Positions 1 through 16,765 of a stretch of DNA of 18,266 bases are shown in pieces. The number at the start of each line of letters is the position of its first letter. The first letter of the stretch is position 1. Where the stretch lies: positions 1 through 18,266 of the forward strand of contig JAGVOC010000309.1 of the NCBI GenBank assembly GCA_020052975.1, written 5' to 3'. The translations under genes and the position numbers were made by a program. Below the pieces are notes generated by a model that saw only the letters and a program-made list of their open reading frames with translations, made no database searches and was not told the DNA's origin. The DNA is from Desulfobacterales bacterium. Lineage in GTDB: Bacteria > Desulfobacterota > Desulfobacteria > Desulfobacterales > RPRI01.

Positions 1-901
1 AGTGGGAAGTTGCAAGCTCTTTTGCAACAAAATTTGTCATGGGCGGTTCGCTTTTGATATTAAGCATCCCGTATAAAGATTCAAGAAAAGCTCCCGCAAT
101 TGCGGCAATTTTCGGATCTATGGTGCGGGTGACAGGAGGAAGCCCTCCGGCCTTTAAAATATTGTTTACCATCTCCCACAAGGGCACAGGTTTCCCCTGA
201 CTGATAAAGAATATTTTTCCCGAAAAGGTATTGTTTTTTTCAAGAGAATCGGCTGCAAGGATATGCGCGTATGCCGCGTTGTCTATATAGATTGTATCAA
301 CCAAGTTTTTCCCATTTCCAACTATGCGAAGCCGTTTCGCCCTTTCTATTATTCTTGGGACAAGATGGTTGTCGCGCGGGCCCCATATGAGATGTGGCCG
401 CAATATGATTGTTTTAAGACCGGATATGGATGCTTTTAAGACATGTTGTTCCGCTATTGCTTTTGTCTGCGGATAATGGGCGTGGAAAACCCCGGGATAC
501 GGAACCGATTCATCAACACCCTCCATGTCATTACCATCGAAAACAACGCTCGGCGAACTTGTGTGTACCAGACAAGAAACATCGTGTCTCCGGCATCCTT
601 CAATGACATTTATTGTTCCGTCCACATTGGTTCTGTAATATTCTTTATAATCGCCCCACACCCCGGGTTTTGCCGCGGTATGGAAAACGATCTCTTTTCC
701 TTTACAGGCATTTTCAACGGCCTTTTTATCGCTTATATCGCCCCGGATCTGCTCCGCATTAAACGGTTCAAGTTCAGGATAATATCTTCTTGAAAAACTC
801 GTTACGCTGTCTCCTCTTCCTGAAAGAAGCTTTGCAATTGCATATCCGAGGAATCCGCCGCCTCCGGTAACAAGAACTTTTCGTGGAGATTTAACATACA
901 T
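1..901 (-). CDS. oleD: OleD-like NAD(P)-dependent 3-ketoacid reductase (3-beta-HSD/epimerase type SDR), C-terminus cut by window edge
   Basis: Extended short-chain dehydrogenase. In olefin biosynthesis OleD reduces the 2-alkyl-3-keto acid made by OleA to a 2-alkyl-3-hydroxy acid. About 300 residues are visible and the frame is open to base 1; the family is usually somewhat over 330 residues, so only the C-terminal tail should be missing. The dinucleotide motif TGGGGFLG is at residues 12-19, the catalytic Ser in HTSSPSVV near 115, and the YxxxK pair is Y143/K147 (HYPQTK). RPHLIWGPRD near 168-177 is typical of the 3-beta-HSD branch. The ATG at 901 puts the Rossmann motif at the usual distance from the N-terminus; a G-rich stretch just upstream could be a weak ribosome site. 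It is the fourth ole gene, 115 nt after oleC, the largest gap in the operon, and that gap holds a hairpin. The position after oleC makes OleD much likelier than a sugar epimerase. Confidence 0.88.
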   Translation of the reverse strand, partial: MYVKSPRKVLVTGGGGFLGYAIAKLLSGRGDSVTSFSRRYYPELEPFNAEQIRGDISDKKAVENACKGKEIVFHTAAKPGVWGDYKEYYRTNVDGTINVIEGCRRHDVSCLVHTSSPSVVFDGNDMEGVDESVPYPGVFHAHYPQTKAIAEQHVLKASISGLKTIILRPHLIWGPRDNHLVPRIIERAKRLRIVGNGKNLVDTIYIDNAAYAHILAADSLEKNNTFSGKIFFISQGKPVPLWEMVNNILKAGGLPPVTRTIDPKIAAIAGAFLESLYGMLNIKSEPPMTNFVAKELATSH

Positions 902-925
902 GAATTATTACCCGTCCCGCCTTTT

Positions 926-978
926 AGGAGCCGTTACGAAATAACCTGTACTTTTTTGATCCTTTCGTTACGGCTCCT
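926..978. repeat. Imperfect 16-bp inverted repeat (hairpin) between oleC and oleD
   Basis: The arm AGGAGCCGTTACGAAA at 926-941 pairs with TTTCGTTACGGCTCCT at 963-978 in 15 of 16 positions, around a 21-nt loop. In the minus-strand mRNA it would fold between oleC and oleD. It is not followed by a U-run on that strand, so it does not look like an intrinsic terminator for the operon. An mRNA-processing or stability hairpin, or a copy of a dispersed intergenic palindrome, fits better. The minus-strand arm starts with AGGAG, so the fold could also hide or offer a Shine-Dalgarno-like sequence, though it lies too far from the oleD start to serve it directly. Confidence 0.7.
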
Positions 979-1016
979 TATGCCGTTTTTGACATCCAGA
1001 TGCCCGCCTTATTTTT

Positions 1017-2681
1017 TTACAGCGGCTTAATTTGTTTTTCAGCCCATGTAGTGAGCTTTTCTCTGAAGATCTTGGAGTTATGCCTGATGTCAACCGGGAA
1101 TGATTTGTGAAAAAGGATAGCTTTTATATCTTTTGTCAATTCATGTTTCCCGGCAATCACAATAAGTTCCTTTTCAATCTTTTTCTTATCGAGATTTACT
1201 TCGTGTTCAGGCTCAATGCAGATGACCGGTATCTGATTCGGTTTTTTCCCGATTCCCACAAGGGCGCTTCTGAAGACTTCCGGATGATTGTTGAATATGG
1301 CCTCGCATGGAATTGTAAAAAGAGTCCCGTCCGGTGTTATTACACGGTGGCTTTTCCGGCCAAGAAACCATATTCTTCCTTTTCCGTCTTTTCTGCCTAG
1401 ATCTCCCATTCTATGCCGGATCTCGTTTCCGTCTTTTATCTTGGAAAGCGCGTCGGCTTCGGGATTATCGAAATATTGTCTTGTAACAAGATCGCCCTTG
1501 ACCGTTATTTCACCGGCCTCGCCGTCTGCTGCAATAATATCATCCGACCATTCATTTATCGGGTTATCTGTAATTTTTATTAGCTGCACCGATATTCCGT
1601 TTAAAGGAGTTCCCACGCAGATTCCATACCCCTGCTCGCTCAACCTCCCTGTTTCGGACAGGATCTCCTTGCTTCCGATCGATATGACCGGGACAGCCTC
1701 CGTGGCTCCGTACGGGGTGTGAATCTCGGAATTTTCAGGGAGCATGGAGGAAAAGCATTTTATGTTTGAAAGCGAAACCGGGGCTCCTGCAGATACAACC
1801 CTTTTTAATGAGGGGAGTTTTATCCCCCTGCTTTTACCGTATCTTCCGACACGGTTTAAGAGGGCAGGGGAGGCGAACATGTTTGTCACACCCTGATTGA
1901 TGACCGCTTCGATTATTTTTTCCGGATTGACAAGGGCCGGTTTTGTGGGGTCCATATCAGGAATCACTGCCGTCATCCCTATGGCAGGATCGAAAAGGGC
2001 AAAGAGGGGAAATGTCGGGAGATCAATTTCATCTGCTCCTATCCTGAAATGCTCTTTGATATGCCTTATCTGGGCATCGAAATTGCCGTGGGTGTACACA
2101 GCGCCTTTTGCAGGCCCGGTGCTGCCGGTAGTAAAGAGTACGGCTGCGGTATCGTTTCTTTTCGTCATTGCCTGAGGATATGATTCTGTTGCTCCCGTTC
2201 TTATCTTGTCAAGGGTATGTCCTCCCCAGAATAAGCGCTGTCCCACTGTTATCCATACTTTTACTGTTTTGAAGAATCCGGGAAATAATGTTCGAAGCAC
2301 ATGGGCAGGTGGTATTCCGATAAAGGCTTCGGGTCCGGTTGATTTAAGACAGGAAAGCATTCTTTTTATACCCATACCGGGATCAACTACTACTGGAACT
2401 GCGCCGGTTTTAAAGAGAGCGAAAACAAGGGCAAAGAAATCAGGCCCGGGTTTTACCATCAGGACGGTCCTTGTTCCCTGATTTATACCCGCTTTATTAA
2501 GTCCGAAAGCTATCCGATCAGATTCCACGGCAAGCTGATGAAAAGTAAGGTGGGCATAGGCTATACGGCCGTTCTTATCCCGTGAAACCGGATAGACGAC
2601 AGCTCTCTTATATGGCTGGATTTCCGCCATTTTTTCAAGATGAGATGATACATTTACAAAATCATCGTTTGGCTTTTGCAT
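1017..2681 (-). CDS. oleC: OleC, AMP-forming beta-lactone synthetase
   Basis: ANL-superfamily adenylating enzyme of 554 residues, the usual OleC size. OleC activates the 2-alkyl-3-hydroxy acid made by OleD with ATP and closes it to a beta-lactone. Visible motifs: the phosphate-binding loop TTGSTGPAKG at 184-193, the YGATE motif at 324-328, the MGDLGRKDGKGRIWFLGR hinge region at 425-442, and a C-terminal lysine (K537 in DIRHNSKIFRE) in the position of the catalytic A10 lysine. The context (oleB 53 nt upstream, oleD downstream) separates it from ordinary fatty-acyl-CoA ligases. The ATG at 2681 has an AAAGG-type ribosome site nearby. No signal peptide or membrane segment is apparent. In other bacteria OleB, OleC and OleD form a soluble assembly; that is family knowledge, not visible here. 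Confidence 0.93.
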   Translation of the reverse strand: MQKPNDDFVNVSSHLEKMAEIQPYKRAVVYPVSRDKNGRIAYAHLTFHQLAVESDRIAFGLNKAGINQGTRTVLMVKPGPDFFALVFALFKTGAVPVVVDPGMGIKRMLSCLKSTGPEAFIGIPPAHVLRTLFPGFFKTVKVWITVGQRLFWGGHTLDKIRTGATESYPQAMTKRNDTAAVLFTTGSTGPAKGAVYTHGNFDAQIRHIKEHFRIGADEIDLPTFPLFALFDPAIGMTAVIPDMDPTKPALVNPEKIIEAVINQGVTNMFASPALLNRVGRYGKSRGIKLPSLKRVVSAGAPVSLSNIKCFSSMLPENSEIHTPYGATEAVPVISIGSKEILSETGRLSEQGYGICVGTPLNGISVQLIKITDNPINEWSDDIIAADGEAGEITVKGDLVTRQYFDNPEADALSKIKDGNEIRHRMGDLGRKDGKGRIWFLGRKSHRVITPDGTLFTIPCEAIFNNHPEVFRSALVGIGKKPNQIPVICIEPEHEVNLDKKKIEKELIVIAGKHELTKDIKAILFHKSFPVDIRHNSKIFREKLTTWAEKQIKPL

Positions 2682-2734
2682 AACACCTTTTTACTTTGCC
2701 GTCCGAATTCCGACTTACAACGAACTCGTCTTCA

Positions 2735-3649
2735 TCAAATTATATGTCTGTTCAAGAAGTCCTCAATAACAGAAGATATCTTTTCAGGTTCATCTTCCAG
2801 CACGTAATGCCCTGCATTATCAAAAATATGAGTTTCGGCCTTTGGAAAGCGTTTTCGCCATTCGGCAAGATAATTTTCCGTGAATACGAAATCATGCTTA
2901 CCCCAGCAGATGAGCATGGGAATATCCGCAAGCCTGTGCAGGTTATCATCAACATACTTAACGGTATCATAGCTCGGATCATTTTTTCCAAGAGGAATAT
3001 CCTGAACAAATCTTAAGGTTGCAATTCTGTTCCTCCATGAATTGTAGGGAGCAATCAACCCCCTTTTTACATCCTTTGAAAGGCCCTTGTATGATGCCAT
3101 GTAAAGAGCGCTCTTTGCAAACAGATTGAACCCGAGGACGGCAATATTTCCAATAAGGCTGATATCGCGTATTATCCGCAATCTCAATGGTATCTTCATA
3201 TTTCTGTCCGGCGGAAAGAATGCCGCACTATTCATAATAACAACAGAGCTTATTTTCTCAGGATTTTTTACTGCATATGCCATGCCGATCATCCCACCCC
3301 AGTCGTGGAGAATAAGCGTTATCTTGCCGGTTAATTCAAGCCGGCTGAGAAATAAATCTATATCTTCGACGCGGCTTTTTAGCCTGTAATCATAATCGGA
3401 TGAATCAGGCTTTCCAGAAAGACCGCAGCCTATATGATCGGGAGCTATTGCACGGAATTCCGGCGACAGATACTTTATGAGGGAGCGAAAATAGAAAGAC
3501 CAGGTAGGATTCCCGTGAATCATCAAAACAGGATTACCTGAACCTTCATCGATATAGTGAAATTTAATCCCTTTTATTTCCGTATAATTCGATTTGAACG
3601 GGTAAAGATGTTTTATACCGGAAATATCAATATGTTTTTCTGTTGCCAC
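2735..3649 (-). CDS. oleB: OleB, alpha/beta-hydrolase beta-lactone decarboxylase
   Basis: Alpha/beta hydrolase of 304 residues related to haloalkane dehalogenases. OleB removes CO2 from the cis-beta-lactone made by OleC, leaving the internal cis-olefin. The fold is marked by HGNPTW at 45-50 (oxyanion region), the nucleophile elbow HDWGG with Asp116, a probable acid Asp253 in WGKHDFVF, and the catalytic His281 in NAGHYVLED. An Asp nucleophile rather than Ser is what OleB and dehalogenases share; the operon position decides for OleB. The start codon is GTG at 3649, giving VATEKH with the first residue read as Met; no earlier in-frame ATG is usable because oleA ends at 3669, only 19 nt away. In some bacteria OleB is fused to OleC; here they are separate with a 53-nt gap. 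Confidence 0.92.
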   Translation of the reverse strand: MATEKHIDISGIKHLYPFKSNYTEIKGIKFHYIDEGSGNPVLMIHGNPTWSFYFRSLIKYLSPEFRAIAPDHIGCGLSGKPDSSDYDYRLKSRVEDIDLFLSRLELTGKITLILHDWGGMIGMAYAVKNPEKISSVVIMNSAAFFPPDRNMKIPLRLRIIRDISLIGNIAVLGFNLFAKSALYMASYKGLSKDVKRGLIAPYNSWRNRIATLRFVQDIPLGKNDPSYDTVKYVDDNLHRLADIPMLICWGKHDFVFTENYLAEWRKRFPKAETHIFDNAGHYVLEDEPEKISSVIEDFLNRHII

Positions 3650-3668
3650 TTAAATATTCCGTATTAAC

Positions 3669-4709
3669 TTACCATTTTATACCAAGCATCAGACAGTTAA
3701 GCCCGCTTCCTATTCCAAGGAAACCAACAAGATCACCCTTTTCCAGAAATTCACGTTCATAAGCAATGGCAGCCGTCAATGGAAGGGATACTGTCCCGAT
3801 ATTTCCAAGATATTGATACGTGGTAAAATCTTTTTCTTTTGGAATACCGAGCGATTCGAGAATCGTTTTCTGGTGTGCAGAGCCTACCTGATGGCAGATT
3901 ATCTTATCAGGTTTGTCTTCGGACAATGAGAGCTCTTTCTTGAATTCTTTAAATGTTTCCATTCCAAGCACAACCCCGTTTTTCAGTACTCCGACCGAAT
4001 CCGTCTCCATTATATGATGTCCGCTTGCAGGTATTCCGGTATCCGGGCCCCATCTGCAGAGTTTATGATGCTCGGCAGCGCTCCTTATCATGCCTCCCAT
4101 CAGACGGTGTTCCTTTTCTGAAACAGATTCATCCGCCAAAAGCACGGCTGCTGCACCTGATCCACCTGTAAGGGTTGCAATGGTTTTTCTGAACATGTCC
4201 ATGTTTTTTTCTTTAAGGAGACGGCCTATTGTATAGTCAACTATCTGACGAGCGGATTCACATGATACAACAAGACCGGCTTTGATCTGGCTAAGTTCTA
4301 TGGCATTTGCAATTTGTACCATGCCGTTCAGTACTCCCAGGCATGCATTTGAGACATCAAAAATATGGGTTTCGTGTGAAAGCCCGAGGCCATCCGCAAC
4401 GGCACAGGCTGTTGCAGGCTCTAAATTATCCCTGCATACTCCACCATAAACAAGCATGCCAATATCTTTTATGTCGATATTCGAGTCGTTTATTGCCTTC
4501 CGGCCGGCTAATGTTGCTCCCTCGTGCATTGTGTAACCTTCATCCCAGAAGCGTCTTTCGTGTATGCCGGTTATTATTTCAAGCTGACCTTTTTGAAAAT
4601 GGAGGTAATCGTACAGTGGTTCAAGGCGCTTTTCGATGTCATCTGATGTTATAACATTGGGCGCAAGCTCATAGCCGAACGATTCTATATAAACCTTTGA
4701 ATACAGCAT
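3669..4709 (-). CDS. oleA: OleA, thiolase-fold enzyme for head-to-head acyl condensation
   Basis: Thiolase-superfamily (KAS III-like) enzyme of 346 residues that catalyses the non-decarboxylative Claisen condensation of two fatty acyl thioesters, the first step of olefin biosynthesis. The catalytic set is complete: Cys123 in VSNACLGVLNGM, His273 in ICHQVGSAHQ and Asn303 in YLGNIGT. LEPATAC near 96-102 carries Glu97 in the position of the OleA-specific glutamate that reaches the partner monomer's active site and separates OleA from FabH. The ATG at 4709 is preceded by AAGGAA at about 11 nt. It starts 36 nt after the end of the polyketide/PUFA-type megasynthase, so the two should share one transcript, suggesting that OleA takes acyl chains made by that system rather than general fatty acids. 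That substrate link is inference. Confidence 0.94.
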   Translation of the reverse strand: MLYSKVYIESFGYELAPNVITSDDIEKRLEPLYDYLHFQKGQLEIITGIHERRFWDEGYTMHEGATLAGRKAINDSNIDIKDIGMLVYGGVCRDNLEPATACAVADGLGLSHETHIFDVSNACLGVLNGMVQIANAIELSQIKAGLVVSCESARQIVDYTIGRLLKEKNMDMFRKTIATLTGGSGAAAVLLADESVSEKEHRLMGGMIRSAAEHHKLCRWGPDTGIPASGHHIMETDSVGVLKNGVVLGMETFKEFKKELSLSEDKPDKIICHQVGSAHQKTILESLGIPKEKDFTTYQYLGNIGTVSLPLTAAIAYEREFLEKGDLVGFLGIGSGLNCLMLGIKW

Positions 4710-4745
4710 TTTGATTTGGTTCCTTGAACAAAAAAAAGTATCAAT

Positions 4746-7700
4746 TTACAATGCAGCGGGGATAAGCTTTATACCAAAGTTCTTCATTTTGTATATATAC
4801 AGCCCGTCTACTTTCAAATAACCGTCTGCCATTATGCAGGGTAAAGGTTCATCCCGGATTTCGGTTACAATTGTTTCAACTTCGATCTTTTTGTTTTCCG
4901 GAATTATCTGTCCGCGGTAAATCCAGTTGTGAGATTTCCCGGTAACCGGAGAAAATCTGTGGGTTTCAGCAAGATGTCCCCATCGTTTAATTGCAATGAA
5001 CTTTATTGTTTGCAGGAAAGATTCTATTCCGAGAGAGCCGGGACAAACAGGATCCTGAAAAAAATGGGCATTAAAAAACCATTCTGACGGATTAACATTT
5101 TTTATTCCCCGGACATAACCGAGTCCGGAAGGACCGCCGTCTTCAGCAAATAAGTCGATAGCATCTATCATGCGAAAAGCCTTTGCCGGCATTGCCATTT
5201 GAAGGGCATTATCGAAAGCGGTGTCGTCCGGAGTAAGAGGAGCTTCATCCCAAAACATATGTGAAATGCCCGTATTGATTTCTTCCGGTAAAGGGCTGTA
5301 TAACTCTTTATCAATGTCTCGGATTCCAACCTGTTTTGACAGGGCTTCCTCCGAGAAAAACCCGAATACGGTATCCCCTTCATAGATGATTCTACCTGCC
5401 TGAATAACCTGCATGTCAAATTCTTCTATAATCATATCTCCCGCCCCGGAGATTTTTTTTGCGCGTGTGCGCATGGTCAGAGTTCCGGAATCCGGCAGGA
5501 CTTCCGAGTGCAGCACCGCATTCCCACCAAGATTCCGGAATTTTAAATCCTTGCTGCTTTTCAGTGCTGAACCCATATATGCGGCAAGCCAGCCGCACGG
5601 CTGAAGGGCGGTTTCAAGAAGCACCGCAAACGGCATCGAAAGCGAGCGGTTTGCTCTGAAGTACCATGCATCCGGCAGGACGTCATATTCGGCTTCAATC
5701 CAGCCTCCCGCTTTCAGAATCCAGGGCTCAGGTTCAATTGAGGTAATTCTGTCCATAAAAAGATAGGGCGGGCCGGGGAGTCTTGCGATGCGCCTTTTTG
5801 AATCAAACACCTCGTATTTATCTCCGAATGCCTCGGATGGTTTTCCGATGGAGAATGCAAGTATCCTGTCTCGGTCAAAAAGAGCTTTCTTTCTTTTGGC
5901 AATTATTCCCTTTGATTTCCATTGGGACTCGATTTCGTCACGGGATATTCCTGTCATTTTCATTGACATATCTTTGAAAAAGACTATCCGGTGTCCATCG
6001 GCATAAATATAAGCATCGGCTATCACATACGGCTCAGGGTTATATCCGATCTCTTTTATTTCAACTTCGTATATCACTTTACGCGTTTTCGGGGTGACAG
6101 GTCCGCGGCATTTTAGAACGCTTTCTACTCCGGCAACAGGTTCGAAGCACACGCCGGGCTTTTCCGTGACCCAACCCATTCGCATAATAAAGACCCTCAA
6201 GGCATGTGAGCAGCATTCATGCATGAGAGTTCCCGGCATTACCATGTCATCCATGAAATGGCAGGTAAGGAACCAGTCATTGTGATGGATATCGGCTTCA
6301 GCCCGAATCATGCCAAGGCCAAAACGTCCGCCTTCTGAGTCTATGGAAAGAATTCTGTCAATCAGCTTCATTCTTCCGCCGGGAAGCCAGAGGGAATCTG
6401 TAAGTTTGATTCCTTCAAAAGAAGATCCGAAACAGCCTGAAAGATTTCCATGCCTGAGAAGTTCCAAGGCGTTATCATCGAAACTTTCGGTAATTAACGG
6501 TACAATCTCTTTCCAGTCGGAAGGTTTTTTGCCTTCAGCCGGCAGAGTATCTTTTTCCGTAAGGATAATTCCTCCTGAATTGTTCACTTCCTCTTCGGTA
6601 AAGAATCCGGCACATCCGTTATACATGCTTATCAGGTGGGTTTTTCCAATATAGCCCTCAAAATTAAAAAAGAAAAGATAAGTCTCTTTCTGTTTCACAA
6701 ATCTTTCGATATTTATTACATAGCGGATTACATCACCGGGTTCAGGCAAGCCGCGGTGAAATTTGATCGTTGCATCAAGCAGCCTGTAAGTTCTTTCTCC
6801 TTTTACTGCAAGATCGATCCCGAGGTAAGAACAGAGAAAAAGATCTGCCTGTCCTGCTTCAACAGAGATGCATACAGGAACATGTCCTCCGTCAAGATAC
6901 CATGCTCCGGGCAGGACATCGTGCTCAGTTATAATACGCCCTGATCCCAGAGAATACTTTTCCCCCTCTATTGAAATTATTCTGTCAACAAGCATCAGTG
7001 GTTCATCGGGAAGGCGTACTCTTGCCCTGTAAGTATCAACTGCGGCAAATTCATTTCCAAGCACTTTTGCCGCTGATCCTGCAGCAAACTCCATGCACAT
7101 ATCACGGGAAAAGAGGGCTTCTTTTTTTTCACTTGATGTGTTGTCTGAAGTCATCTTTTCAAACAGGTTTATCTGGAAAGTAAAAGTATCTGCAAAGCTT
7201 TTTGCCAGTTCATTTGAAAAATCGAGGTATTTATTATGCGCTTTGGTGGTTGATTCAATGTTATTTTTGATGGACTTTATTAATTCAATATAATCTGTCG
7301 CGGTATTGACGTGTTTTTTATTAATCTCTTTCTTAAAAGCAGGAGTAATTGTATTTTCTTCGGATGCATTTGTGATATTTAGTAGTTCCTTATAATCATG
7401 TGTTTTCATATTTATCAGAGAAAGGACAGGCGCTCTGCCTCCGGTTGATAATACCATTCTGCGGCCTTCATTTTCAGATAAAACTTTTATCCCCGGAGAG
7501 ACTCCTTCGTAAATCCTGCCTGTATCGACAGGAATTCTTTCTCCTATGAGAGATCCCATGAATTTCATGAAGGTAACATATTCATCCTCACCCCTGACAG
7601 ATGCAGAAGCGGCAAAGTGCGGCCTGTTCTCAAGAATCCTGTCTATCATTCTTGTGCATGAAGAAAGAGGCCCGGTTTCAATAAAAATGCGTATCCCGTC

Positions 7701-10700
7701 TTTATAAGCCTGCTCTATTGTTGCAGTGAAGTCAAAGCCGTGGATTGCCTGTTTTAATATAGACGAAGCGGCATTTGCGCCGGTCATTTCATATGAACGT
7801 CCAAGCGCACAGCTGTAAAAGGTAATTCCTTCAGGCGGCTTAACCGGAAATAGGTGAAGCTCTTCATATTTATCGGCTACGGGGTTGACGGCATCGCAGT
7901 GAACCGTGACAACACCCTCAAGAAAAACCGCTTCGCATGAAAGGTCCCTTATTAAGGCTTCAACCTGTTTTTTCATGCCGCCTATTACACATTCATCCGG
8001 CGTGTTGACTATCAAAAGCCTCACATATGGAAAAGTTGCCAGTGCTTTGATTACATTCTTTGCCGGGCGATTTACTACTGCGGCGCACCAGTCTATGTTT
8101 TCACCGGAGGGGATATTCCATGACTTGCGGGCGGCATTGCATGTACCTGCAAGTTCTGAAGTAAACAGGTCTGTTTTAAGCATTCTGTCGAGCATTTCAC
8201 CGTAGTCAGGCCATACATTCATCGCAAAATTGCCGGCAGACTCTCCGAGGCTGTATCCTATAACAGCAGAAGGTTTAACCCCGAAATTGATCAGGAGCTT
8301 AGCGATAATCCCGCTGTAGGCAACTTGTCCGAAAATCATGTTTAATGGGTTGGCGGCAATTTTTTGCTCGGCGTCGTTTTCCCACCCCTTCTTCCATGAG
8401 CTCCGCCATGGAACAAAGCATTCCGGAACAAGCTGTGTTTTAAGCTTTTCTGTCTTAGCATCCATTTTCCGCAGTATATCCGGAAAATAAACTCCTGTTC
8501 CTCTGCCCATTCCCAGATAGTGATTTCCGGAACCGGGGAAAACGAAAGCCGTTTTATTTTGTTGTCCGAGCGGGTTTGGTGAATAGTAAATTCCACCCGG
8601 GCCGTTCATTTTTTTATGAGTGTCGGTTTCAACAATGTATTTTGCATCTTTTATCCATTTTTGAAGATGACTGATATCCCCTGCTGCAATTGACAGGGCA
8701 TATTTTTTTGAACTGTCGGGTTTTCTATACTGAATCCAATTAAATGCGCATTCATTTATATCGTTTGTATTAATTATTTTTCCGGAAAGGGAATCAACGC
8801 CGTCTGTGAGTTCATTCTTTGTATTGCCGTCAATAATGAAAAGACCGAAATTTCTTTGTCCCAGGGAGTTTTTTCTTTCTATGGAAATCTTTTCAGGAAT
8901 GGCATCCAGTGCGGGGTATTCATGGCCTTTAATAACAACATGCATACAGTTCCCGTCCTTCGTTATTGAAGATATGCATGCCGTGCGGGGACCATCTATT
9001 CTGTTCCTGTACCAGAATTGAGGCGATACAGGAAAGTGGAGGTTGTTTTCCACGATAGTGATAGGTTCTGTAAAATTTACCAGCGGCGGTATAATTTCGT
9101 GGTACAGGCAAAGGCAAGCCTTTATAAGAGAAGCAAGCCCTGATGCTGATCCGGCATTACCAATATTTGGTTTTACAGAACCGATGGCGCATTTGGCAGG
9201 TGAGTTTTTGAATAATTTATTTAATGTTTCTATTTCGATGGTGTCTTCAGAAGGATTTCCGCTGCCGTGCGCTTCGAAATAGCTTATGGAAAATGGTGAA
9301 ACAGAGGCATCGCTTACTGCTCTTTCAAGAGAAAGGGCATAAGTCTCCTTCAAGGGAGGGTGCGCATTATGCTCGCTTGCATCTGCCTTGCCGATACCAT
9401 TAATAACCGCATAAATTCTGTCATTATCTTTAACAGCCTGGTCAAGATTTTTCAGAATTATTGCGGCAGCCCCCTCACCGGGCAAGGTTCCGCCGGATAA
9501 AATATCGAAAGGAGCGACCTTGCCGCTTTTGGAGTAACACTGTAACCTGTCAGAGATTATTATGTTTCGTATATCACCTGAGAGGTCAACGGCGCCTATA
9601 AGCATCATATCAGCTTCATTCTGCCGGATAGCTCTTGCTCCGATTTCAATAGCCTTAAGACCAGATGACGAATCACATGAAACAACAAAGCTTGGCCCTC
9701 CAAAACGGAATTCCCGGGCAATCCTGCTTGCTATGATGCCGCCAAGGGCTCCAAGTGTTCTTGATGATGTAAGGGGTGAGGAACAAGCATCCTGAACGGC
9801 TTTCATGTCTGAATTTGCCTTTTGTCCTTCTGATGAATTTAACAGATCCCACCGGAGCTGAAAATTTGTTGCTTCGTAGTCAAAGTCTGCTCCGATAATA
9901 ACTCCCATTCGATTGCGGATTTTTCTTGCGGGCAGCCCCGCGTCATTCATTGCCGCTGCCGCCACTTCAAGCATCAGGAGATGCTGAATGAGAATATCAG
10001 GAATTTCAATGGGCGGAATATGAAACGCACCGGAATTGAAATCAATTTCCTTTATATAAGCTCCCCATAAACCGCGGCCATCAAGAAGCTTACAGGCAAG
10101 TTCATCACATCCTTTCCATCGGTCTTCCGGCCTTTTGCATATGGCGGAATTACCGTTGAATACCCCTTCCTGAAATTCCTTAAGAGATTTAAAGGTTCCA
10201 AAAAGAGCGCCCATTCCAACAATTGCAACAGGGGATGTCAATTTCTCATCTGATGCCCGGGCCGAATATTTTCTGGTTCCGGAGGATTTCAAACGCGGGT
10301 CATGTACATCGGGGAGCCATTCTTCAAAAAGAAGATGGCCGTTGATTCCGCCAAATCCGAAAGCGCTCACTGCCGCGCGAAACGGTGTGTTTTCACTTTT
10401 TCTTTCCCATTTTTCGATATCCGTCTGAACCCTGAAAGGGCTGCCGTGAAGCGGGCTTTTTTCAGGCGCCTTTGTAAAATTAAGAGATGGCGGGAGGGTT
10501 TTGTGTTTTATTGCAAGAAGTGTTTTTATCATTCCTGCAGCGCCGGCGCCTGTCAGAAGATGACCTATCATTGATTTCACGGAGCCTATTGAACATTGGC
10601 CCTTTGACCATCCGGAATTTCCCCATAATTTTGTAAGGCTGGTGAGTTCGGTAATGTCTCCTGCCGGAGTTCCGGTCCCGTGGCATTCGATGAGACCGAC

Positions 10701-11663
10701 ATCATGCGGAGTCCATCCTGATGATTCGTAGGCGATACGCATGGCGCGCTCCTGCCCTTCGGAATCGGGAGACAGAAGATTCCCTCCTATGTCATTCGAA
10801 AGTCCTATGCCGCTGATGAGGCCGTATATTGTGTCATTATCTCTTAATGCATCTTCGAACCTTTTCAGAACAAGAATGCCGGCGCCTTCTCCAACAACAA
10901 GTCCATCGGCCTTTTCATCAAAAGGAGAGCAGCGTCCTGAAGGAGAAAGGGCACGTAGTTGGCTGAAACCAACCTGCGTGTACAGGCAGTCGGGTCTTGA
11001 AACACCTCCTGCCAGCATGGCATCTGCGTGGTATGAATTAAGTTCGTCACATGCAAGTTTTACTGCATATATGGAAGAAGCGCATGCTGCATCAAGAGTG
11101 AAGCTCCCGCCGCATAGACCAAGACCCTTTGCCAGAATTGCGGCCGGGAGGCTTGTTACCCTGGCGGAAAGAGCCTCTGCTGTTGATATATACCTGTTAT
11201 CAGAAGAAAAGGATTTACCGAATAGATTTTTCCGGTATGACTGGCCAATAATTTTTCGTGCCAGTCCTGAAGATGAGTCGGTAGGAAGAGCTATGGCAGC
11301 AAGTGCAACCCCGGTTCTTTTTCTGTCAAGGTTTTTTGTGTTGCAGCATAAGAAAGCTTCCCTGCCGGCATGAAGGACAAACTGATAAAGAGGATCAATC
11401 TCTTCTAAAATATTTTTATCTATGTCAATTCCTGCCGGATCGAATCTAAAATCATTTATCAGACAGGCCCTTCTGGAATAGGCTTTATCCGGCCTGAAAC
11501 TTTTTTCATACATAAAGGCAGAAGGGACTCTCCATCTGTCTTCAGGTATTTCAGATGTGGTGTCAATTTTATTGACAATATTATGCCAGAAGGAATTAAT
11601 ATCCAAGGCCCCCGGAAACAGGCCTGCCATTCCAACAACTGCTATTGAAGTTTTTATCTTCAT
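4746..11663 (-). CDS. PUFA-synthase (PfaC/HglC-HglD)-like iterative polyketide synthase: KS, CLF, AT, DH-DH, DH-DH
   Basis: A 2305-residue multidomain protein. KS1 (about 1-450) is complete: Cys194 in DAACASS, His328 in ECHGTGT, His368 in SMIGHLL. KS2 (about 476-915) has Ser665 in the Cys position (SCDSSS) and Asn836 where the second His should be (NIGN), keeping only His799, so it is a chain-length-factor-like domain. The acyltransferase (about 1036-1390) has FPGSGNHYLGMG and the nucleophile Ser1138 in GYSLGE. A helical linker follows (about 1440-1510). Four hotdog domains form two FabA/PfaC-type dehydratase pairs: 1516-1690 with 1750-1905 (CHFMDDMVMPG, His1802), and 1928-2105 with 2145-2300 (NAHFFQDPVCPG, His2200). 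I find no ACP Ser motif, ketoreductase or enoyl reductase, so a PfaA/HglE-like partner must act in trans. The layout resembles HglC and HglD joined, or PfaC with an AT inserted. It is the first gene of the operon; the ATG at 11663 has no strong Shine-Dalgarno. Confidence 0.9.
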   Translation of the reverse strand: MKIKTSIAVVGMAGLFPGALDINSFWHNIVNKIDTTSEIPEDRWRVPSAFMYEKSFRPDKAYSRRACLINDFRFDPAGIDIDKNILEEIDPLYQFVLHAGREAFLCCNTKNLDRKRTGVALAAIALPTDSSSGLARKIIGQSYRKNLFGKSFSSDNRYISTAEALSARVTSLPAAILAKGLGLCGGSFTLDAACASSIYAVKLACDELNSYHADAMLAGGVSRPDCLYTQVGFSQLRALSPSGRCSPFDEKADGLVVGEGAGILVLKRFEDALRDNDTIYGLISGIGLSNDIGGNLLSPDSEGQERAMRIAYESSGWTPHDVGLIECHGTGTPAGDITELTSLTKLWGNSGWSKGQCSIGSVKSMIGHLLTGAGAAGMIKTLLAIKHKTLPPSLNFTKAPEKSPLHGSPFRVQTDIEKWERKSENTPFRAAVSAFGFGGINGHLLFEEWLPDVHDPRLKSSGTRKYSARASDEKLTSPVAIVGMGALFGTFKSLKEFQEGVFNGNSAICKRPEDRWKGCDELACKLLDGRGLWGAYIKEIDFNSGAFHIPPIEIPDILIQHLLMLEVAAAAMNDAGLPARKIRNRMGVIIGADFDYEATNFQLRWDLLNSSEGQKANSDMKAVQDACSSPLTSSRTLGALGGIIASRIAREFRFGGPSFVVSCDSSSGLKAIEIGARAIRQNEADMMLIGAVDLSGDIRNIIISDRLQCYSKSGKVAPFDILSGGTLPGEGAAAIILKNLDQAVKDNDRIYAVINGIGKADASEHNAHPPLKETYALSLERAVSDASVSPFSISYFEAHGSGNPSEDTIEIETLNKLFKNSPAKCAIGSVKPNIGNAGSASGLASLIKACLCLYHEIIPPLVNFTEPITIVENNLHFPVSPQFWYRNRIDGPRTACISSITKDGNCMHVVIKGHEYPALDAIPEKISIERKNSLGQRNFGLFIIDGNTKNELTDGVDSLSGKIINTNDINECAFNWIQYRKPDSSKKYALSIAAGDISHLQKWIKDAKYIVETDTHKKMNGPGGIYYSPNPLGQQNKTAFVFPGSGNHYLGMGRGTGVYFPDILRKMDAKTEKLKTQLVPECFVPWRSSWKKGWENDAEQKIAANPLNMIFGQVAYSGIIAKLLINFGVKPSAVIGYSLGESAGNFAMNVWPDYGEMLDRMLKTDLFTSELAGTCNAARKSWNIPSGENIDWCAAVVNRPAKNVIKALATFPYVRLLIVNTPDECVIGGMKKQVEALIRDLSCEAVFLEGVVTVHCDAVNPVADKYEELHLFPVKPPEGITFYSCALGRSYEMTGANAASSILKQAIHGFDFTATIEQAYKDGIRIFIETGPLSSCTRMIDRILENRPHFAASASVRGEDEYVTFMKFMGSLIGERIPVDTGRIYEGVSPGIKVLSENEGRRMVLSTGGRAPVLSLINMKTHDYKELLNITNASEENTITPAFKKEINKKHVNTATDYIELIKSIKNNIESTTKAHNKYLDFSNELAKSFADTFTFQINLFEKMTSDNTSSEKKEALFSRDMCMEFAAGSAAKVLGNEFAAVDTYRARVRLPDEPLMLVDRIISIEGEKYSLGSGRIITEHDVLPGAWYLDGGHVPVCISVEAGQADLFLCSYLGIDLAVKGERTYRLLDATIKFHRGLPEPGDVIRYVINIERFVKQKETYLFFFNFEGYIGKTHLISMYNGCAGFFTEEEVNNSGGIILTEKDTLPAEGKKPSDWKEIVPLITESFDDNALELLRHGNLSGCFGSSFEGIKLTDSLWLPGGRMKLIDRILSIDSEGGRFGLGMIRAEADIHHNDWFLTCHFMDDMVMPGTLMHECCSHALRVFIMRMGWVTEKPGVCFEPVAGVESVLKCRGPVTPKTRKVIYEVEIKEIGYNPEPYVIADAYIYADGHRIVFFKDMSMKMTGISRDEIESQWKSKGIIAKRKKALFDRDRILAFSIGKPSEAFGDKYEVFDSKRRIARLPGPPYLFMDRITSIEPEPWILKAGGWIEAEYDVLPDAWYFRANRSLSMPFAVLLETALQPCGWLAAYMGSALKSSKDLKFRNLGGNAVLHSEVLPDSGTLTMRTRAKKISGAGDMIIEEFDMQVIQAGRIIYEGDTVFGFFSEEALSKQVGIRDIDKELYSPLPEEINTGISHMFWDEAPLTPDDTAFDNALQMAMPAKAFRMIDAIDLFAEDGGPSGLGYVRGIKNVNPSEWFFNAHFFQDPVCPGSLGIESFLQTIKFIAIKRWGHLAETHRFSPVTGKSHNWIYRGQIIPENKKIEVETIVTEIRDEPLPCIMADGYLKVDGLYIYKMKNFGIKLIPAAL

Positions 11664-11757: not shown

Positions 11758-11786
11758 TTTATACCCGACATAGGCTTTTTAGGCAA
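11758..11786 (-). promoter_or_regulatory. Candidate sigma-70 promoter for the megasynthase-oleABCD operon
   Basis: Read on the minus strand, TTGCCT (11781-11786) and TATAAA (11758-11763) are separated by 17 bp. That gives 4 of 6 and 5 of 6 matches to the -35 and -10 consensus. Transcription would start near 11751, leaving a leader of about 88 nt that contains the 11700-11750 inverted repeat. A second, weaker pair of similar sequence (TTGCCC, then GGTATAAA, 19-bp spacing) follows just downstream. The AT-rich setting makes chance matches possible. Confidence 0.45.
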
Positions 11787-11813
11787 GAACCAATATTTGA
11801 TGGTTTTGTAAAA

Positions 11814-12548
11814 AGTACGAATGACGTTTATCCTACAGCCATAAAAGTTGCTCTGCATTTTGGCATCAAGCGTCTGACTGTCGCGATGGCCGAACTGTAA
11901 ACGGCGTTCGCTGCAAAAGCTGGCCGACATCACCGGCGTTCCGGTCGTCACTGCCGTCAATTTGGTCGAGGCTACCTATGATTGCGGGGCTTTTGTGTAG
12001 CTCTCCGGGGTACTAAAACGTGTTGCGGTCAAGCTCTCCAAGATTTGCAATGATTTACGGCTGCTTTCCTCGGGTCCGCGCGCAGGATTGAACGAAATCA
12101 ACCTGCCATCGATGCAGGAGGGCTCCTCGATCGTGCCAAGCAAGGTCAATCCGGTAATTCTGGAAGTAATGAACCGGATCGCGTTTGAAGTGATCGGCAA
12201 CGATGTTACGGTGAGCTTTGCCGCTGAGGCTGGGCAGATACAGCTCAACGCTTTCGAGCCGATTATCGTACACAGCCTCTTCATCAAAAGCCTGAAACAC
12301 TTGCGCAATGGTTGCCGCACGCTATCCGGGCGCTGCGTAAAAGGCATCAACGCAAATCGCGAGCACTTGAGGAAAATGGTTGAACAGTCGATCGGCATTG
12401 TTACAGCGCTGAATCCCTATATCGGCTATACTAACGCGACGCAGGTAGCACAGGAAGCGCTGGCGAGTGGTAAAAGCGTCTACGACACCTAGTGCTTGAG
12501 AAAAAACTGCTCAACAAAGGGCAGCGATCACGGTTTGCTGATGATTGA
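11814..12548 (+). pseudogene. aspA: Decayed aspartate ammonia-lyase (aspartase) gene
   Basis: The relic starts abruptly in one frame at STNDVYPTAIKVAL (11814) and runs to a stop at 11898-11900. RRSLQ, the natural continuation, then appears in another frame after four extra bases, and jumps directly to KLADITGVPVV. Compared with aspartases recalled from memory, roughly 70-80 codons are missing there, including the conserved GRTQLQDAVP segment. The new frame continues through a nonsense TAG at 11998-12000, past SKICNDLRLLSSGPRAGLNEINLP and the family signature GSSIVPSKVNPV, to GKSVYD. A further frameshift near 12487 restores LVLEKKLLNKG before decay to a stop at 12546-12548. The N-terminal third is absent. 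GLNEINLP favours aspartase over class II fumarase. It is the only recognisable plus-strand coding remnant and lies between the two minus-strand blocks. It cannot encode a working enzyme. Confidence 0.9.
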
Positions 12549-12592
12549 TAGCATATATGAATGATCTCTTGTTCAGGAACCGAGACCTAAAC

Positions 12593-13597
12593 TTACAAGT
12601 CATCCCAAAAGGTATCCAGGTAGGCGTAAATTCCCGGCGATCCTCCGGTGTGAACAAAGAGCAGTTTCTCAGCGGGACCAAAGAAGCCTTTTTTGACTAG
12701 GTCAATCATACCGGCCATGGCCTTACCTGTGTAAACGGGGTCCATTAAAATGGCCTCGGTTCGTGCGATCAGTTTGACAGCATCCACCATGGCAGAGGAA
12801 GGCAGTGAATATCCGGGCCCGACATAATCATCGAAACAACGGACTGCCTCCCTGGGTATGGCCTGCCGAATTCCCAACAAGTCAGCGGTTTTTTTGACAA
12901 GTGAAAAAACCAGGTTTTCCTGTATGTCCTTGGGTCGGGAGACATTGATTCCCACTACCGGTAACCGGCTGTTGCTGCCGACCAAGCCGGTCACCAAACC
13001 GGCATGGGTCCCGGCGCTGCCGCTGGCGCATACTACATGATCGAAGTGCAATCCCTGCTCAAAGGATTGGGACAGGATTTCCTGGGCGCAGGCGACGTAA
13101 CCCAAGGCGCCGATCTCATTAGAAGCCCCGCCCTGGATGATGTATGGCTTTTTGCCTTCGGTTCGTAGTTTGTCTGCAACGTCCTGCATGGCGGCCATCA
13201 TGTCGCTGCCGCCCGGCACCACTTTGATGCCGGCTACCCCCATGAGATGAAACAGAAAATTGTTACCACTGGCCTTTGGGTTGTAGGATCCCGCCACCCG
13301 CTCTTCCAATACCAGATGACATTCAAGCCCTTCTTTAACGGCCGCGGCCAAAGTCAGGCGGCAGTGGTTGGATTGGACTGCCCCGCAGGTAATCAGAGTA
13401 TCGCTGCCTTTTTGGAGGGCATCTGCCACTACAAACTCAAGCTTGCGGGTCTTGTTGCCGCCACCCGCCAAGCCCAGAAGATCGTCCCGTTTCATGTAAA
13501 TACTAGGACCGCCCAATTGTTCGGAAAGCCGCTTGAGCGGTTCGATGGGTGTTCGTCCTACAGTGTAATGCCGACGAGGAAAGCGCGCTAGATCCAT
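12593..13597 (-). CDS. cuyA: PLP-dependent L-cysteate sulfo-lyase / D-cysteine desulfhydrase family enzyme (CuyA/DcyD-like)
   Basis: Fold-type II PLP enzyme of 334 residues in the ACC-deaminase/D-cysteine desulfhydrase family. The Schiff-base lysine is K49 in GGNKTRKLEF, the substrate loop is QSNHCR at 75-80, the PLP-phosphate loop is GSAGTHAG at 193-200, and DPVYTGKAMAG (286-296) and HTGGSPG (316-322) are conserved segments. QSNH rather than QSNQ argues against true ACC deaminase. CuyA splits L-cysteate into pyruvate, ammonium and sulfite; DcyD splits D-cysteine into pyruvate, ammonium and sulfide. The N-terminus (MDLARFPR) and overall sequence resemble CuyA as remembered. The transporter and aspartate-type racemase upstream favour an acidic substrate such as cysteate, but sequence alone does not settle it. 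The ATG at 13597 has AGGAG with a 6-nt spacing. It follows the racemase by 123 nt and is the last gene of its block; no clear terminator is seen after it. Confidence 0.85.
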   Translation of the reverse strand: MDLARFPRRHYTVGRTPIEPLKRLSEQLGGPSIYMKRDDLLGLAGGGNKTRKLEFVVADALQKGSDTLITCGAVQSNHCRLTLAAAVKEGLECHLVLEERVAGSYNPKASGNNFLFHLMGVAGIKVVPGGSDMMAAMQDVADKLRTEGKKPYIIQGGASNEIGALGYVACAQEILSQSFEQGLHFDHVVCASGSAGTHAGLVTGLVGSNSRLPVVGINVSRPKDIQENLVFSLVKKTADLLGIRQAIPREAVRCFDDYVGPGYSLPSSAMVDAVKLIARTEAILMDPVYTGKAMAGMIDLVKKGFFGPAEKLLFVHTGGSPGIYAYLDTFWDDL

Positions 13598-13720
13598 AAG
13601 TCACTCCTATTTGCAGAGGTCTCACGTTATTTAAAAACGCATTGATTTAACTGAATTTTATCGCCTGTAAGGGGCGGCGACGCCTTAAAATTATCCATGT
13701 TGGTTTCTCAGGTTCCAGGG

Positions 13721-14446
13721 TTATTCCGCAATGGGTATCGGTTTGACCCCGGCTCTGCGGATCGCAGCACGAGCCAGAATCAACAAGGAATCGAAATAGG
13801 GAACGGTGACATCGGCCGTGCTCAAAGCCAGCGGAATTTCGGTACATCCGGCGATGATCCCCTGGGCGCCCGAATCCACCAGAACTTGGGCGGCGGCGGC
13901 CAGATTGGCGGTAATGGCCTCCCGAGAACGATCCGCCCGGACTTTCTTGATGTCATAGATAGCGGCCATTACCTGGTCCTGAACCTCAGAATCGCAAAGA
14001 ACGGTCTCGATCCCTTCCTCTCTCAGCCTCTTTTGAAAAAGACCGCCCCGAATTGTGCCGGTGGTGCCAAGCAGCCCCACAATCTTGATTTTCTTATGGT
14101 CATGGGAAATGCTCGTGGCCACAACGTCGAAAATAGAAACAAAGGGAAGTGTTATCTGCTGCCGCAATTCTTCCTGGAAAAAATGGGCTGAGATGCAGGG
14201 CATGATGATGAAATCGGCGCCAGCCTGCTGTAAGGTCCTGCACCCTTCCAGCAGCAGCGGCAGCGGAGACGGCCCTGTACCGAGAATGGCTGCTGTCCGG
14301 TCGGGTATCTTGGGGTTTGAATCAATAATGACCCGCAGATGGTCTTGATCCTTTCCGGCCGGGGTATTCTTTATGATTTTTTCAAAGCAGTCCAGGGTCG
14401 CCTCCGGCCCCATGCCGCCGATTATGCCGATGACCTTCTCTGCCAT
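13721..14446 (-). CDS. Aspartate/glutamate racemase family protein, possibly a cysteate racemase
   Basis: Cofactor-independent two-cysteine racemase of 241 residues, close to the usual length of aspartate racemases. The N-terminus GIIGGMGPEAT is diagnostic. Both catalytic cysteines are present: Cys84 in MPCISAHFF and Cys201 in IAGCTEIPL. The first motif is usually CNTAH in aspartate racemases; here Asn-Thr is replaced by Ile-Ser, which may reshape the pocket for another substrate. It lies 24 nt after the ABC ATPase gene with a strong ribosome site (GGGGAGG) before the ATG at 14446, so it is cotranscribed with the transporter. With a cysteate/D-cysteine lyase next door, a role in interconverting the enantiomers of cysteate, a sulfonate analogue of aspartate, is plausible. 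Aspartate or glutamate racemisation remains the conservative reading. Cytoplasmic; no signal peptide. Confidence 0.87.
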   Translation of the reverse strand: MAEKVIGIIGGMGPEATLDCFEKIIKNTPAGKDQDHLRVIIDSNPKIPDRTAAILGTGPSPLPLLLEGCRTLQQAGADFIIMPCISAHFFQEELRQQITLPFVSIFDVVATSISHDHKKIKIVGLLGTTGTIRGGLFQKRLREEGIETVLCDSEVQDQVMAAIYDIKKVRADRSREAITANLAAAAQVLVDSGAQGIIAGCTEIPLALSTADVTVPYFDSLLILARAAIRRAGVKPIPIAE

Positions 14447-14470
14447 CTTTACCTCCCCTTCACCCGGGCC

Positions 14471-15196
14471 TCAGATTAATATCTGGCTGAGGAACGCCCT
14501 TGTGCGTTCATTCTTGGGATTTGCAAAAAAACTCTCGTCCGTTCCTCTTTCAATAATTTTACCTTCATCAATAAAGATGATCTCATCGGCCACTTCGCGT
14601 GCAAAGCCCATCTCGTGAGTGACAACGATCATGGTCATTCCTTCTTTGGCAAGGTCTGTCATCACGTCGAGCACCTCCTTGATCATTTCAGGATCTAGGG
14701 CAGAGGTGGGTTCATCAAAGAGCATGTAGCTCGGATCCATAGCCAGGCTGCGGGCAATAGCCACCCGCTGCTGCTGTCCGCCGGAGAGGTTTGCCGGGTA
14801 TGCCATGGCTTTTTCAGGAATGCCTACACGTTCAAGAAGCGCAACAGCCCTCTTTTCCGCCTCGCGCTTCGACTTTTTCAGCACCTTCATTGGCGCAAGA
14901 GTAATGTTGTTCAGTACCGTCATATGAGGATAAAGCTCGAACTTCTGGAAGACCATGCCGATTTTCTGCCGCAGCTTGTAGAGGTTCGTTTTAGGGTTGC
15001 TCAATGAGACGTCGTCTACAATGATTTCTCCCCTCTGGTAAGGTTCCAAACCATTGACGCACCGTAAAAGAGTACTCTTTCCGGAACCACTGGGTCCGCA
15101 GATGACTACGGTTTGGCCCCTGGCTATGGTTTCGTTGATATTTGTAAGTACCTGGAAATCATCATACCACTTGCTCATGTTCTTGATTTCTATCAT
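14471..15196 (-). CDS. gltL: Polar amino acid ABC transporter ATPase (GltL/GlnQ type)
   Basis: ABC ATPase of 241 residues with every hallmark: Walker [10 protein letters not shown] at 34-42, Q-loop Gln84, signature [14 protein letters not shown] at 137-150, Walker [12 protein letters not shown] at 158-168, and the switch His194 in VVTHEMGFA. Length and sequence match the GlnQ/GltL subfamily, which energises uptake of glutamate, aspartate, glutamine and related polar amino acids. Its ATG at 15196 overlaps the upstream permease stop by 4 nt (ATGA), so the two are translationally coupled. It acts at the cytoplasmic face of the inner membrane with the two permeases. Substrate is set mainly by the binding protein, so the symbol marks subfamily rather than proven glutamate transport. 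Confidence 0.95.
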
Positions 15197-15849
15197 AAGA
15201 TATTGGCCTTTCGACTCTTATCTTCATAGTGACGGCTGATGCGAGAGCCTATAAAACAGATAACAAAGAAAAGCGCAGCAACGAAGCTGTAAAGCTGAAT
15301 GGAGCGGACCTCCATGCTGTCGACGATGGTGGTTCTGCGAACTAATTCCTGAAGCCCGATAACGTAAGCCAGGCTGGTATCCTGAAAGGTGATGATGCTT
15401 TGAGTGATCATACTGGGAAGCATCCTGCGGACGGCAATGGGCACCAGGATGTAACGAGCCGTCTGGGTGTAAGTAAGACCTGTTGAGTAAGCGGCGCTTA
15501 CCAGATCACGGCTGATAGACTGGAAGCCTGCTCTGAAGATCTCTCCGAAATAGGTGGCTTCAAAGACCACGAAGGAGATGGCCGCGGAGAGAAAAGGCTG
15601 CATGGGCCTGCCGAACAAAACGGGCATGATAAAGTAGAACCAGAAAATGACCAGGATGAGAGGGATGTTCCGGATGAAGTTCACGTAAAAAGTAACACTG
15701 TGATACACATAGATGTTCTTCGATATCCGCCCCAGACCCACCAAAACACCCAGGAAGATTCCCCCCGCAAGAGCGCAGACCGCCAGTTCAACGTTCGTCA
15801 GGAATCCCTTTAAAAGGTAGGGGAGATTATCGATTATTGCATTGAACAT
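15193..15849 (-). CDS. gltK: Polar amino acid ABC transporter permease (GltK type)
   Basis: Inner-membrane permease of 218 residues with about five hydrophobic segments. The N-terminal one, typical of this His/Glu/Gln/Arg transporter family, spans about 18-40. The family motif [16 protein letters not shown] is at 58-73. The EAA-type ATPase-docking loop runs from [10 protein letters not shown] to ARYILVP (about 103-137), with the expected conserved Gly in STG. The gene begins one nucleotide after the stop of the other permease and overlaps the ATPase gene at its end, the same order as gltJ-gltK-gltL. It should form a heterodimer with the neighbouring permease. Nothing looks truncated. Confidence 0.93.
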
Positions 15850-15850
15850 A

Positions 15851-16567: not shown

Positions 16568-16692
16568 TTCCTACCCCTCTAACCTGACCCCATCCTGCAA
16601 TATATAACAATGCCTTTCACCATATCCTGGAAAAGCGAAAAACCTTCCCCCCTGAGCTTAGAGATTGGGTTCCTCTTCTTCAGTCTCTATGT

Positions 16693-16726: not shown

Positions 16727-16765
16727 GGTCCGGTTTTTTCGCACGAGCGGAGAGTGCCCATACCG

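What the first reader, a model, noticed from the sequence alone, without database searches (positions are those of the whole stretch)
1..11663. A PUFA-synthase-type megasynthase and oleABCD in one operon: a dedicated polyketide-to-olefin pathway
Seen: a 2305-residue KS-CLF-AT-DH4 protein is followed, 36 nt later, by oleA, then oleB, oleC and oleD, all on one strand. Known: in Shewanella, OleABCD turns PUFA-pathway acyl chains into a C31 polyunsaturated hydrocarbon, but ole genes mostly draw on general fatty acids. Inferred: the tight linkage points to a specialised system in which the synthase makes the chain OleA joins, giving a long polyunsaturated or otherwise unusual hydrocarbon, perhaps a membrane lipid of an anaerobe.
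Basis: partly seen in the sequence, partly recalled or inferred. Interest (0 to 1): 0.85.

Follow-up and report, generated by a model that had tools for sequence, protein, structure and literature searches.

The report
Polyene-hydrocarbon operon in sulfate-reducer relatives
This is one part of a known kind of fatty-acid-like synthase placed directly in front of the genes that join two of its chains head to head into a long, probably polyunsaturated hydrocarbon; the pairing recurs widely in related anaerobic bacteria and its kind was already described in Geobacter.

Summary
Observation confirmed. On the minus strand a 2305-aa PfaB-PfaC-type protein (KS, CLF, AT, two active and two degenerate FabA-like hot-dogs) is followed after 36 nt by oleA, oleB, oleC and oleD (oleD cut by the window edge). 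The protein shows no ACP, KR or ER and only a PfaB-type AT, so it should not make a chain alone. In a close relative (86% identity) PfaD and PfaA lie upstream, past a tauE gene; the window's right edge is the end of that tauE, with about 6.3 kb of unrelated genes in between. The partner is thus expected to the right, not the left. In 242 genomes of the order, 149 encode both OleA and the DH part; where the tool listed both places (121), OleA sits just downstream in 91. Linked OleAs fall in one clade (100/100). Best reading: a Pfa-type synthase feeding polyunsaturated chains to OleABCD, giving a long polyene hydrocarbon, plausibly C31:9. The idea and architecture are in print: Geobacter bemidjiensis carries pfaDABC-oleABCD-pfaE in tandem and makes C31:9 (PMC4882568; PMC3098273). 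New member of a known kind; what is added is how general and steady the PfaBC-OleA junction is.

The parts
4746..11663 (-). PfaB-PfaC-type fusion protein, 2305 aa: KS (about 6-458), CLF (about 476-900), PfaB-type AT (about 1018-1381), DH'-DH-DH'-DH (about 1550-2293)
   Evidence: KS Cys194/His328/His368, AT Tyr1137-Ser1138 and His1255, DH His1802 and His2200 in 117 of 117 aligned full-length relatives
3669..4709 (-). oleA: thiolase-fold head-to-head condensing enzyme, 346 aa
   Evidence: (PDB 3row, E 3e-63), 60: Cys123, Glu97, His273, Asn303 invariant in 52 of 52 rows
2735..3649 (-). oleB-like alpha/beta hydrolase (beta-lactone decarboxylase expected), GTG start
   Evidence: Asp in HDWGG, His in AGHY
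1017..2681 (-). oleC-like adenylate-forming beta-lactone synthetase
2..901 (-). oleD-like NAD(P)H reductase, C-terminal end beyond the window
11758..11786 (-). candidate promoter of the fusion-ole unit: TTGCCT-N17-TATAAA inside a block conserved in three relatives
   Evidence: not scored by the stricter scan
11803..18100 (.). interposed block: ABC amino-acid-type importer, Asp/Glu racemase-like protein, CuyA-like D-cysteate sulfo-lyase, lyase-family (aspartase/fumarase) remnant; absent between tauE and the fusion gene in three relatives
18101..18266 (-). C-terminal end of a TauE/SafE exporter that directly precedes the fusion gene in relatives L001, L002, L018

Best explanation
The window holds the second half of a Pfa (PUFA-synthase-type) system plus the ole pathway, probably as one transcription unit. 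PfaA (KS-MAT-ACP-KR-DH) and PfaD (ER), expected upstream beyond the window or elsewhere in the genome, elongate and reduce an ACP-bound chain; the KS-CLF and DH domains of the window protein extend it and set double bonds without oxygen; its PfaB-type AT is the likely exit step. OleA then condenses two such chains head to head, OleD reduces, OleC closes the beta-lactone and OleB removes CO2 (roles of OleB-D recalled), giving a long polyunsaturated hydrocarbon, plausibly C31:9 as reported for Geobacter bemidjiensis and Shewanella. Shown here: gene order, domains, intact active sites, recurrence of the junction, co-occurrence. Inferred: transcription, activity, AT-to-OleA hand-off, product.
For: Active-site residues of KS, AT and two DHs are kept in 117 of 117 aligned full-length relatives (one Glu-to-Asp), including the GYSxG motif of PfaB acyltransferases (motif from PMC12895367, passages). 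In 242 genomes of the order: OleA in 161, DH part in 165, both in 149; PfaD in 177, OleC in 165, all four in 130. Of 121 genomes with listed places for both, OleA lies under 2 kb downstream on the same strand in 91, within 100 nt in 60; restricted to plus-strand OleAs with at least 10 kb upstream on the contig, 28 of 33. PfaD is in 87 and OleC in 89 of the 91 genomes. Relatives L002 and L040 have pfaD-pfaA upstream of the fusion gene. OleA tree: one 100/100 clade holds all 37 linked rows plus 3 unlinked. Published: tandem pfaDABC-oleABCD-pfaE and C31:9 in G. bemidjiensis; OleA takes the Pfa chain in Shewanella and in E. coli.
Against: pfaA and pfaD are not in the window and no whole genome is held for it, so their presence in this organism is inferred. 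Relatives L003, L016 and L026 show no oleA in the 8.6, 5.1 and 2.9 kb held downstream of the fusion gene, and L027, L028 and L033 have another large ORF there. 30 of the 121 genomes are not adjacent: 8 on the same contig, 22 on different contigs (some at contig ends). L025 lacks oleA between the fusion gene and oleB. Of 20 genomes with at least 29.5 kb upstream of the DH match, PfaD lies within 25 kb upstream on the same strand in 8 of the 19 with a listed PfaD. The PfaB, OleC and OleD equivalog-type models are not reached. Product unmeasured.
Confidence: 0.85

Rival explanations
1. The synthase makes a separate polyunsaturated lipid and OleABCD uses ordinary fatty acids; the adjacency is inherited neighbourhood only.
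For: 30 of 121 genomes have the genes apart or on different contigs; in some relatives the fusion gene has no ole genes nearby; OleA enzymes in general can take ordinary fatty acyl chains (PMC6463001, passage).
Against: In the same 20 genomes the fusion gene has OleA next to it in 15, while PfaD, its own synthase partner, is within 25 kb upstream in 8 of 19; linked OleAs form one clade; the same kind of cluster in G. bemidjiensis goes with C31:9.
Confidence: 0.12
2. A sub-case of the best reading: both routes run, the synthase feeding phospholipid PUFA while OleA drains an intermediate chain, as in Shewanella.
For: Known behaviour in Shewanella (PMC6463001, passages).
Against: None found here by any search; that strict anaerobes of this group hold little PUFA in phospholipids is recalled only.
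Confidence: 0.3
3. In this particular strain the pathway is dead: the 6.3-kb block has cut the fusion gene from its upstream partners.
For: The block lies between tauE and the fusion gene in the window and not in L001, L002 and L018.
Against: The conserved promoter-like block stays with the fusion gene; the five reading frames are open (oleD as far as it is seen) with intact motifs; several linked relatives have PfaD far away or on another contig.
Confidence: 0.07

Closest known systems
Geobacter bemidjiensis pfaDABC-oleABCD-pfaE cluster (Type I of Shulse and Allen 2011; PMC4882568 and PMC3098273, passages seen)
   Same: Pfa synthase genes followed directly by oleABCD in a strict anaerobe; Type I clusters contain a pfaBC fusion; product C31:9 reported
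   Different: In the window pfaA and pfaD are not adjacent; in the relative G001 the only PPTase found lies on another contig; product unknown
Shewanella / Photobacterium pfaABCDE and oleABCD (PMC6463001, passages seen)
   Same: OleA condenses Pfa-derived chains; the two operons are adjacent in P. profundum SS9
   Different: There pfaB and pfaC are separate genes and ole genes form a separate operon
Types C and K of Shulse and Allen (Desulfatibacillum alkenivorans, Desulfococcus oleovorans; PMC3098273, passages seen)
   Same: Sulfate reducers; Type C has a pfaBC fusion KS-CLF-AT-DH2; Type K is said to have a configuration similar to Type I
   Different: The place of ole genes in these two species was not in the passages I saw
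Myxobacterial Pfa3 / thraustochytrid OrfB-OrfC (recalled)
   Same: KS-CLF-AT-DH arrangement
   Different: make DHA/EPA for lipids, with AGPAT or ER domains and no ole genes (recalled)

Membership tests
PfaB-PfaC fusion (secondary lipid / Pfa synthase) | KS with Cys-His-His followed by a CLF lacking the Cys | tested here: met
   KS residues invariant in 117 of 117; the CLF residue aligned to the KS Cys (665) is Ala, Glu, Ser, Gly, Thr or Asp
PfaB-PfaC fusion (secondary lipid / Pfa synthase) | PfaB-type AT with Tyr before the catalytic Ser (GYSxG) | tested here: met
   Tyr, Ser and His in 117 of 117; for the motif. But the family model TIGR02816 stays below its cut-off (108.7 vs 144.3 bits)
PfaB-PfaC fusion (secondary lipid / Pfa synthase) | Paired FabA-like DH domains | tested here: met
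Complete Pfa synthase | PfaA with tandem ACPs, PfaD, PPTase in the same genome | tested here: inconclusive
   Not in the window and no genome held; present in relatives G001/L002 and G200; two ACPs in L002 and L040, one recognised in G200
OleABCD pathway | OleA catalytic Cys, Glu, His, Asn | tested here: met
   (roles of the residues recalled; matched to PDB 3row by alignment)
OleABCD pathway | oleB, oleC, oleD in order behind oleA | tested here: met
   oleD truncated by the window; OleC and OleD equivalog cut-offs not reached, OleB by hydrolase family and position only
Polyunsaturated hydrocarbon (C31:9) producer | C31:9 or similar polyene in non-polar lipids | not testable with these tools
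   no chemistry available

The most novel reading that the evidence does not exclude
The PfaBC-OleA pair is a physical hand-off unit: the PfaB-type AT passes the ACP-bound polyene straight to OleA, so that the synthase makes hydrocarbon only and no membrane PUFA, and this holds for most of an order of anaerobic, largely sulfate-reducing bacteria. These would then be a large, unrecognised source of C31-range polyenes, which after hydrogenation in sediment could pass for n-C31 usually credited to plant wax.
Probability: 0.2. Interest if true: 0.75.

Novelty: new member of a known kind. Interest (0 to 1): 0.4.

Why it matters
Head-to-head polyene hydrocarbons are known from few cultures. Here 149 of 242 genomes of one order encode both OleA and the partner synthase part, which makes such hydrocarbons a likely general trait of these anaerobes and poses a sharp test: which step of the synthase hands its chain to OleA. 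The joint between the two pathways is kept about as often as the bond between oleA and oleC inside the ole pathway (91 against at least 87 of 121 genomes) and more often than the bond between the fusion gene and PfaD (15 of 20 against 8 of 19). If such polyenes are made in anoxic sediment they bear on the reading of long odd-chain hydrocarbons as biomarkers (inference).

Tried and rejected
Partner to the left of the window: rejected; in relatives L001, L002 and L024 oleD is followed by a PocR-like and an HdrA-like gene, and in L002 pfaD-pfaA lie upstream.

'DH4' as a novel domain count: rejected; two of the four hot-dogs lack a His in the aligned catalytic column (Gly in 86, His in 1 of 117 for the first; Asp, Asn or Glu in 117 of 117 for the second). 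In the first one a His stands one column later in 38 of 117.

'The fusion gene-oleA bond is firmer than any other in the set': I held this at first and dropped it on recount; over the 121 genomes oleA-oleC contiguity is at least 87 (68 + 19; the OleC list is cut, so a lower bound), close to the 91 for fusion-oleA. Only the comparison with PfaD favours the junction.

Partner close by in all genomes: rejected. Of 20 genomes with a plus-strand DH match at least 29.5 kb into its contig, 15 have OleA adjacent; PfaD places read by eye: within 25 kb upstream on the same strand in 8 (G001, G009, G067, G071, G074, G111, G129, G182), 36-51 kb away on the other strand in 3, elsewhere in 8, place not listed in 1.

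Promoter: the standard scan found no sigma-70-like site upstream; the candidate rests on conservation in four sequences. Inside 700-4900 (both strands) 3 terminator-like sites, all on the plus strand (4.1 expected), and 15 promoter-like sites (7.8 expected, sd 2.8; 6 on the minus strand), so internal promoters are not excluded.

Literature: searches (open-licence PMC only). PMC13291983 was searched for ole terms and has none. The 2010 Sukovich papers were not seen; what is said of them comes from citing papers.
Full report
What is there. The five genes lie on the minus strand in the order fusion gene, oleA, oleB, oleC, oleD, with gaps of 36, 19, 53 and 115 nt. The fusion protein matches two ketoacyl synthases, an AT close to the PfaB family and four FabA-like stretches. 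It has no ACP, KR or ER by Pfam and no LGxDS motif. In 117 full-length relatives (of 121 proteins at hand, themselves the best of 3891 hits) the KS triad, the AT Tyr-Ser-His set and the His and Asp of two hot-dogs are invariant and their Glu is kept but for one Asp; the other two hot-dogs and the CLF lack the catalytic residue in the aligned column. GYSxG instead of GHSxG is found in bacterial PfaB, shown to be a terminal acyltransferase (PMC12895367, abstract and passages). So 'KS-CLF-AT-DH4' is a pfaBC fusion, as described for Types C, H, I and L by Shulse and Allen (PMC3098273, passages; in Type L the AT comes last). OleA keeps the four residues aligned to the catalytic ones in 52 of 52 rows and matches the X. 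campestris OleA structure 3row.

Where the partner is. The closest relatives are MAG contigs at 86-89% protein identity (L001, L002). L002, on the longest of these, reads pfaD (TIGR02814, 471 bits) - pfaA (KS-MAT-ACP2-KR-DH, TIGR02813, 1396 bits) - small membrane protein - tauE - fusion gene - oleA - oleB - oleC - oleD - PocR-like - HdrA-like. The window's right edge encodes the last 55 residues of the same tauE (80% identity). Between it and the fusion gene lie about 6.3 kb that L001, L002 and L018 lack there: an ABC importer, a racemase-like protein, a CuyA-like D-cysteate sulfo-lyase and a lyase remnant. One relative, G200 (the genome of L001), has a 91% CuyA on another contig; four others searched have none. 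The block ends just upstream of a stretch that is conserved in window, L001, L002 and L018 and reads TTGCCT-N17-TATAAA in the window, so the fusion-ole unit probably kept its own promoter. The standard promoter scan did not score it.

How general it is. In 242 genomes of the order of G001 (the genome of L002), OleA (E 1e-60) is in 161, the DH part in 165, PfaD in 177, OleC (E 1e-120) in 165; OleA and DH part together in 149, all four in 130, none in 45 (Fisher test for OleA and DH part 5e-31, not corrected for kinship). Places for both OleA and DH part were listed for 121 genomes: OleA is directly downstream on the same strand in 91 (median gap 75 nt from the end of the match; 60 within 100 nt), on the same contig but apart in 8, on other contigs in 22. 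To lessen contig-end effects: of 33 genomes with a plus-strand OleA at least 10 kb into its contig and a placed DH part, 28 are adjacent. Of the 91, PfaD is in the genome of 87 and OleC of 89. OleC lies within 6 kb behind OleA in 68 of the 91 and in 19 of the other 30 (lower bounds). In 20 genomes with long upstream sequence OleA adjoins the fusion gene in 15, and PfaD is within 25 kb upstream in 8 of 19. In a draw of 247 genomes from the whole phylum, 23 have OleA; 10 of these are linked, all among the 12 that fall in one OleA clade, none among the 11 outside it, with about 1.5 kb upstream visible; G001 itself, found through the fusion gene, is one of the 10. The tool held 5 genomes for the phylum of G243, and in all 5 a fusion-type DH part ends 9-323 nt before oleA; G243 and G244 were reached through the fusion gene. 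The loci L001-L046 were fetched by the fusion gene and so are not an unbiased sample.

OleA family. A tree of 52 OleAs places all 37 linked rows and 3 unlinked ones in one clade at 100/100 support; the label needs 4 changes against 13.3 in shuffles. One of the three, L021, has oleA about 2.0 kb behind the fusion gene, just over my 2-kb limit. Seventeen positions are nearly fixed in the clade and differ outside; whether they line the acyl channel was not tested.

Against. L003, L016 and L026 show no oleA in the 8.6, 5.1 and 2.9 kb held behind the fusion gene; L033 has a pyruvate-carboxylase-like protein there, and L027 and L028 an ORF of the same size that was not scanned. L025 has the fusion gene followed by oleB and a short oleC without oleA. 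Some loci keep oleA-oleB with the fusion gene and no oleC behind them. The window organism's pfaA and pfaD were not seen.

What is known. PMC4882568 (passages) states that Geobacter bemidjiensis carries pfaD, A, B, C, oleA, B, C, D and pfaE in tandem and has been shown to make C31:9, and discusses such hydrocarbons in strict anaerobes. [quoted passage not shown] PMC6463001 (passages) shows that OleA draws on the Pfa chain in Shewanella and in E. coli. PMC10176705 (passages) notes oleC of Desulfobacteraceae in anoxic water.

Verdict. A new member of a known kind, well supported as a Pfa-Ole polyene hydrocarbon unit (0.85), with C31:9 as the most likely product by analogy (my estimate 0.55).

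Noticed in passing
window 11803-18100: A block with CuyA-like D-cysteate sulfo-lyase, racemase-like protein and an amino-acid ABC importer lies between tauE (a sulfite-exporter family) and the fusion gene; together they look like a cysteate-use cassette beside a sulfite exporter.
   Followed up: partly
window 12088-12492: Remnant of an aspartase/fumarase-family lyase on the plus strand (FumaraseC_C and C-terminal Lyase_1 matches), without the N-terminal part in the same frame.
   Followed up: partly
window 926-978: Inverted repeat of 16 nt (94% complementary, 21 nt between the arms) in the 115-nt oleC-oleD gap; relatives L001, L002 and L024 have gaps of under 10 nt there, and a 15-nt arm recurs nowhere else in the window nor in the loci held.
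   Followed up: partly
L005, L006, L020, L021, L022: Fusion gene, oleA and oleB together but no oleC or oleD behind them in the sequence held; in several genomes of the order draw oleC is on another contig.
   Followed up: partly
L025 9878-14587: Fusion gene followed directly by oleB and a short oleC (213 aa), with oleA missing: possibly a decaying unit.
   Followed up: no
L033 10197-13871 (also L027, L028): Fusion gene followed by a pyruvate-carboxylase-like protein of 1224 aa instead of oleA; L027 and L028 have an ORF of the same size at the same place, not scanned.
   Followed up: partly
L086 8573-9484; L088 1875-2783: A tyrosine-recombinase (phage integrase family) gene lies just upstream of pfaD in two relatives.
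   Followed up: no
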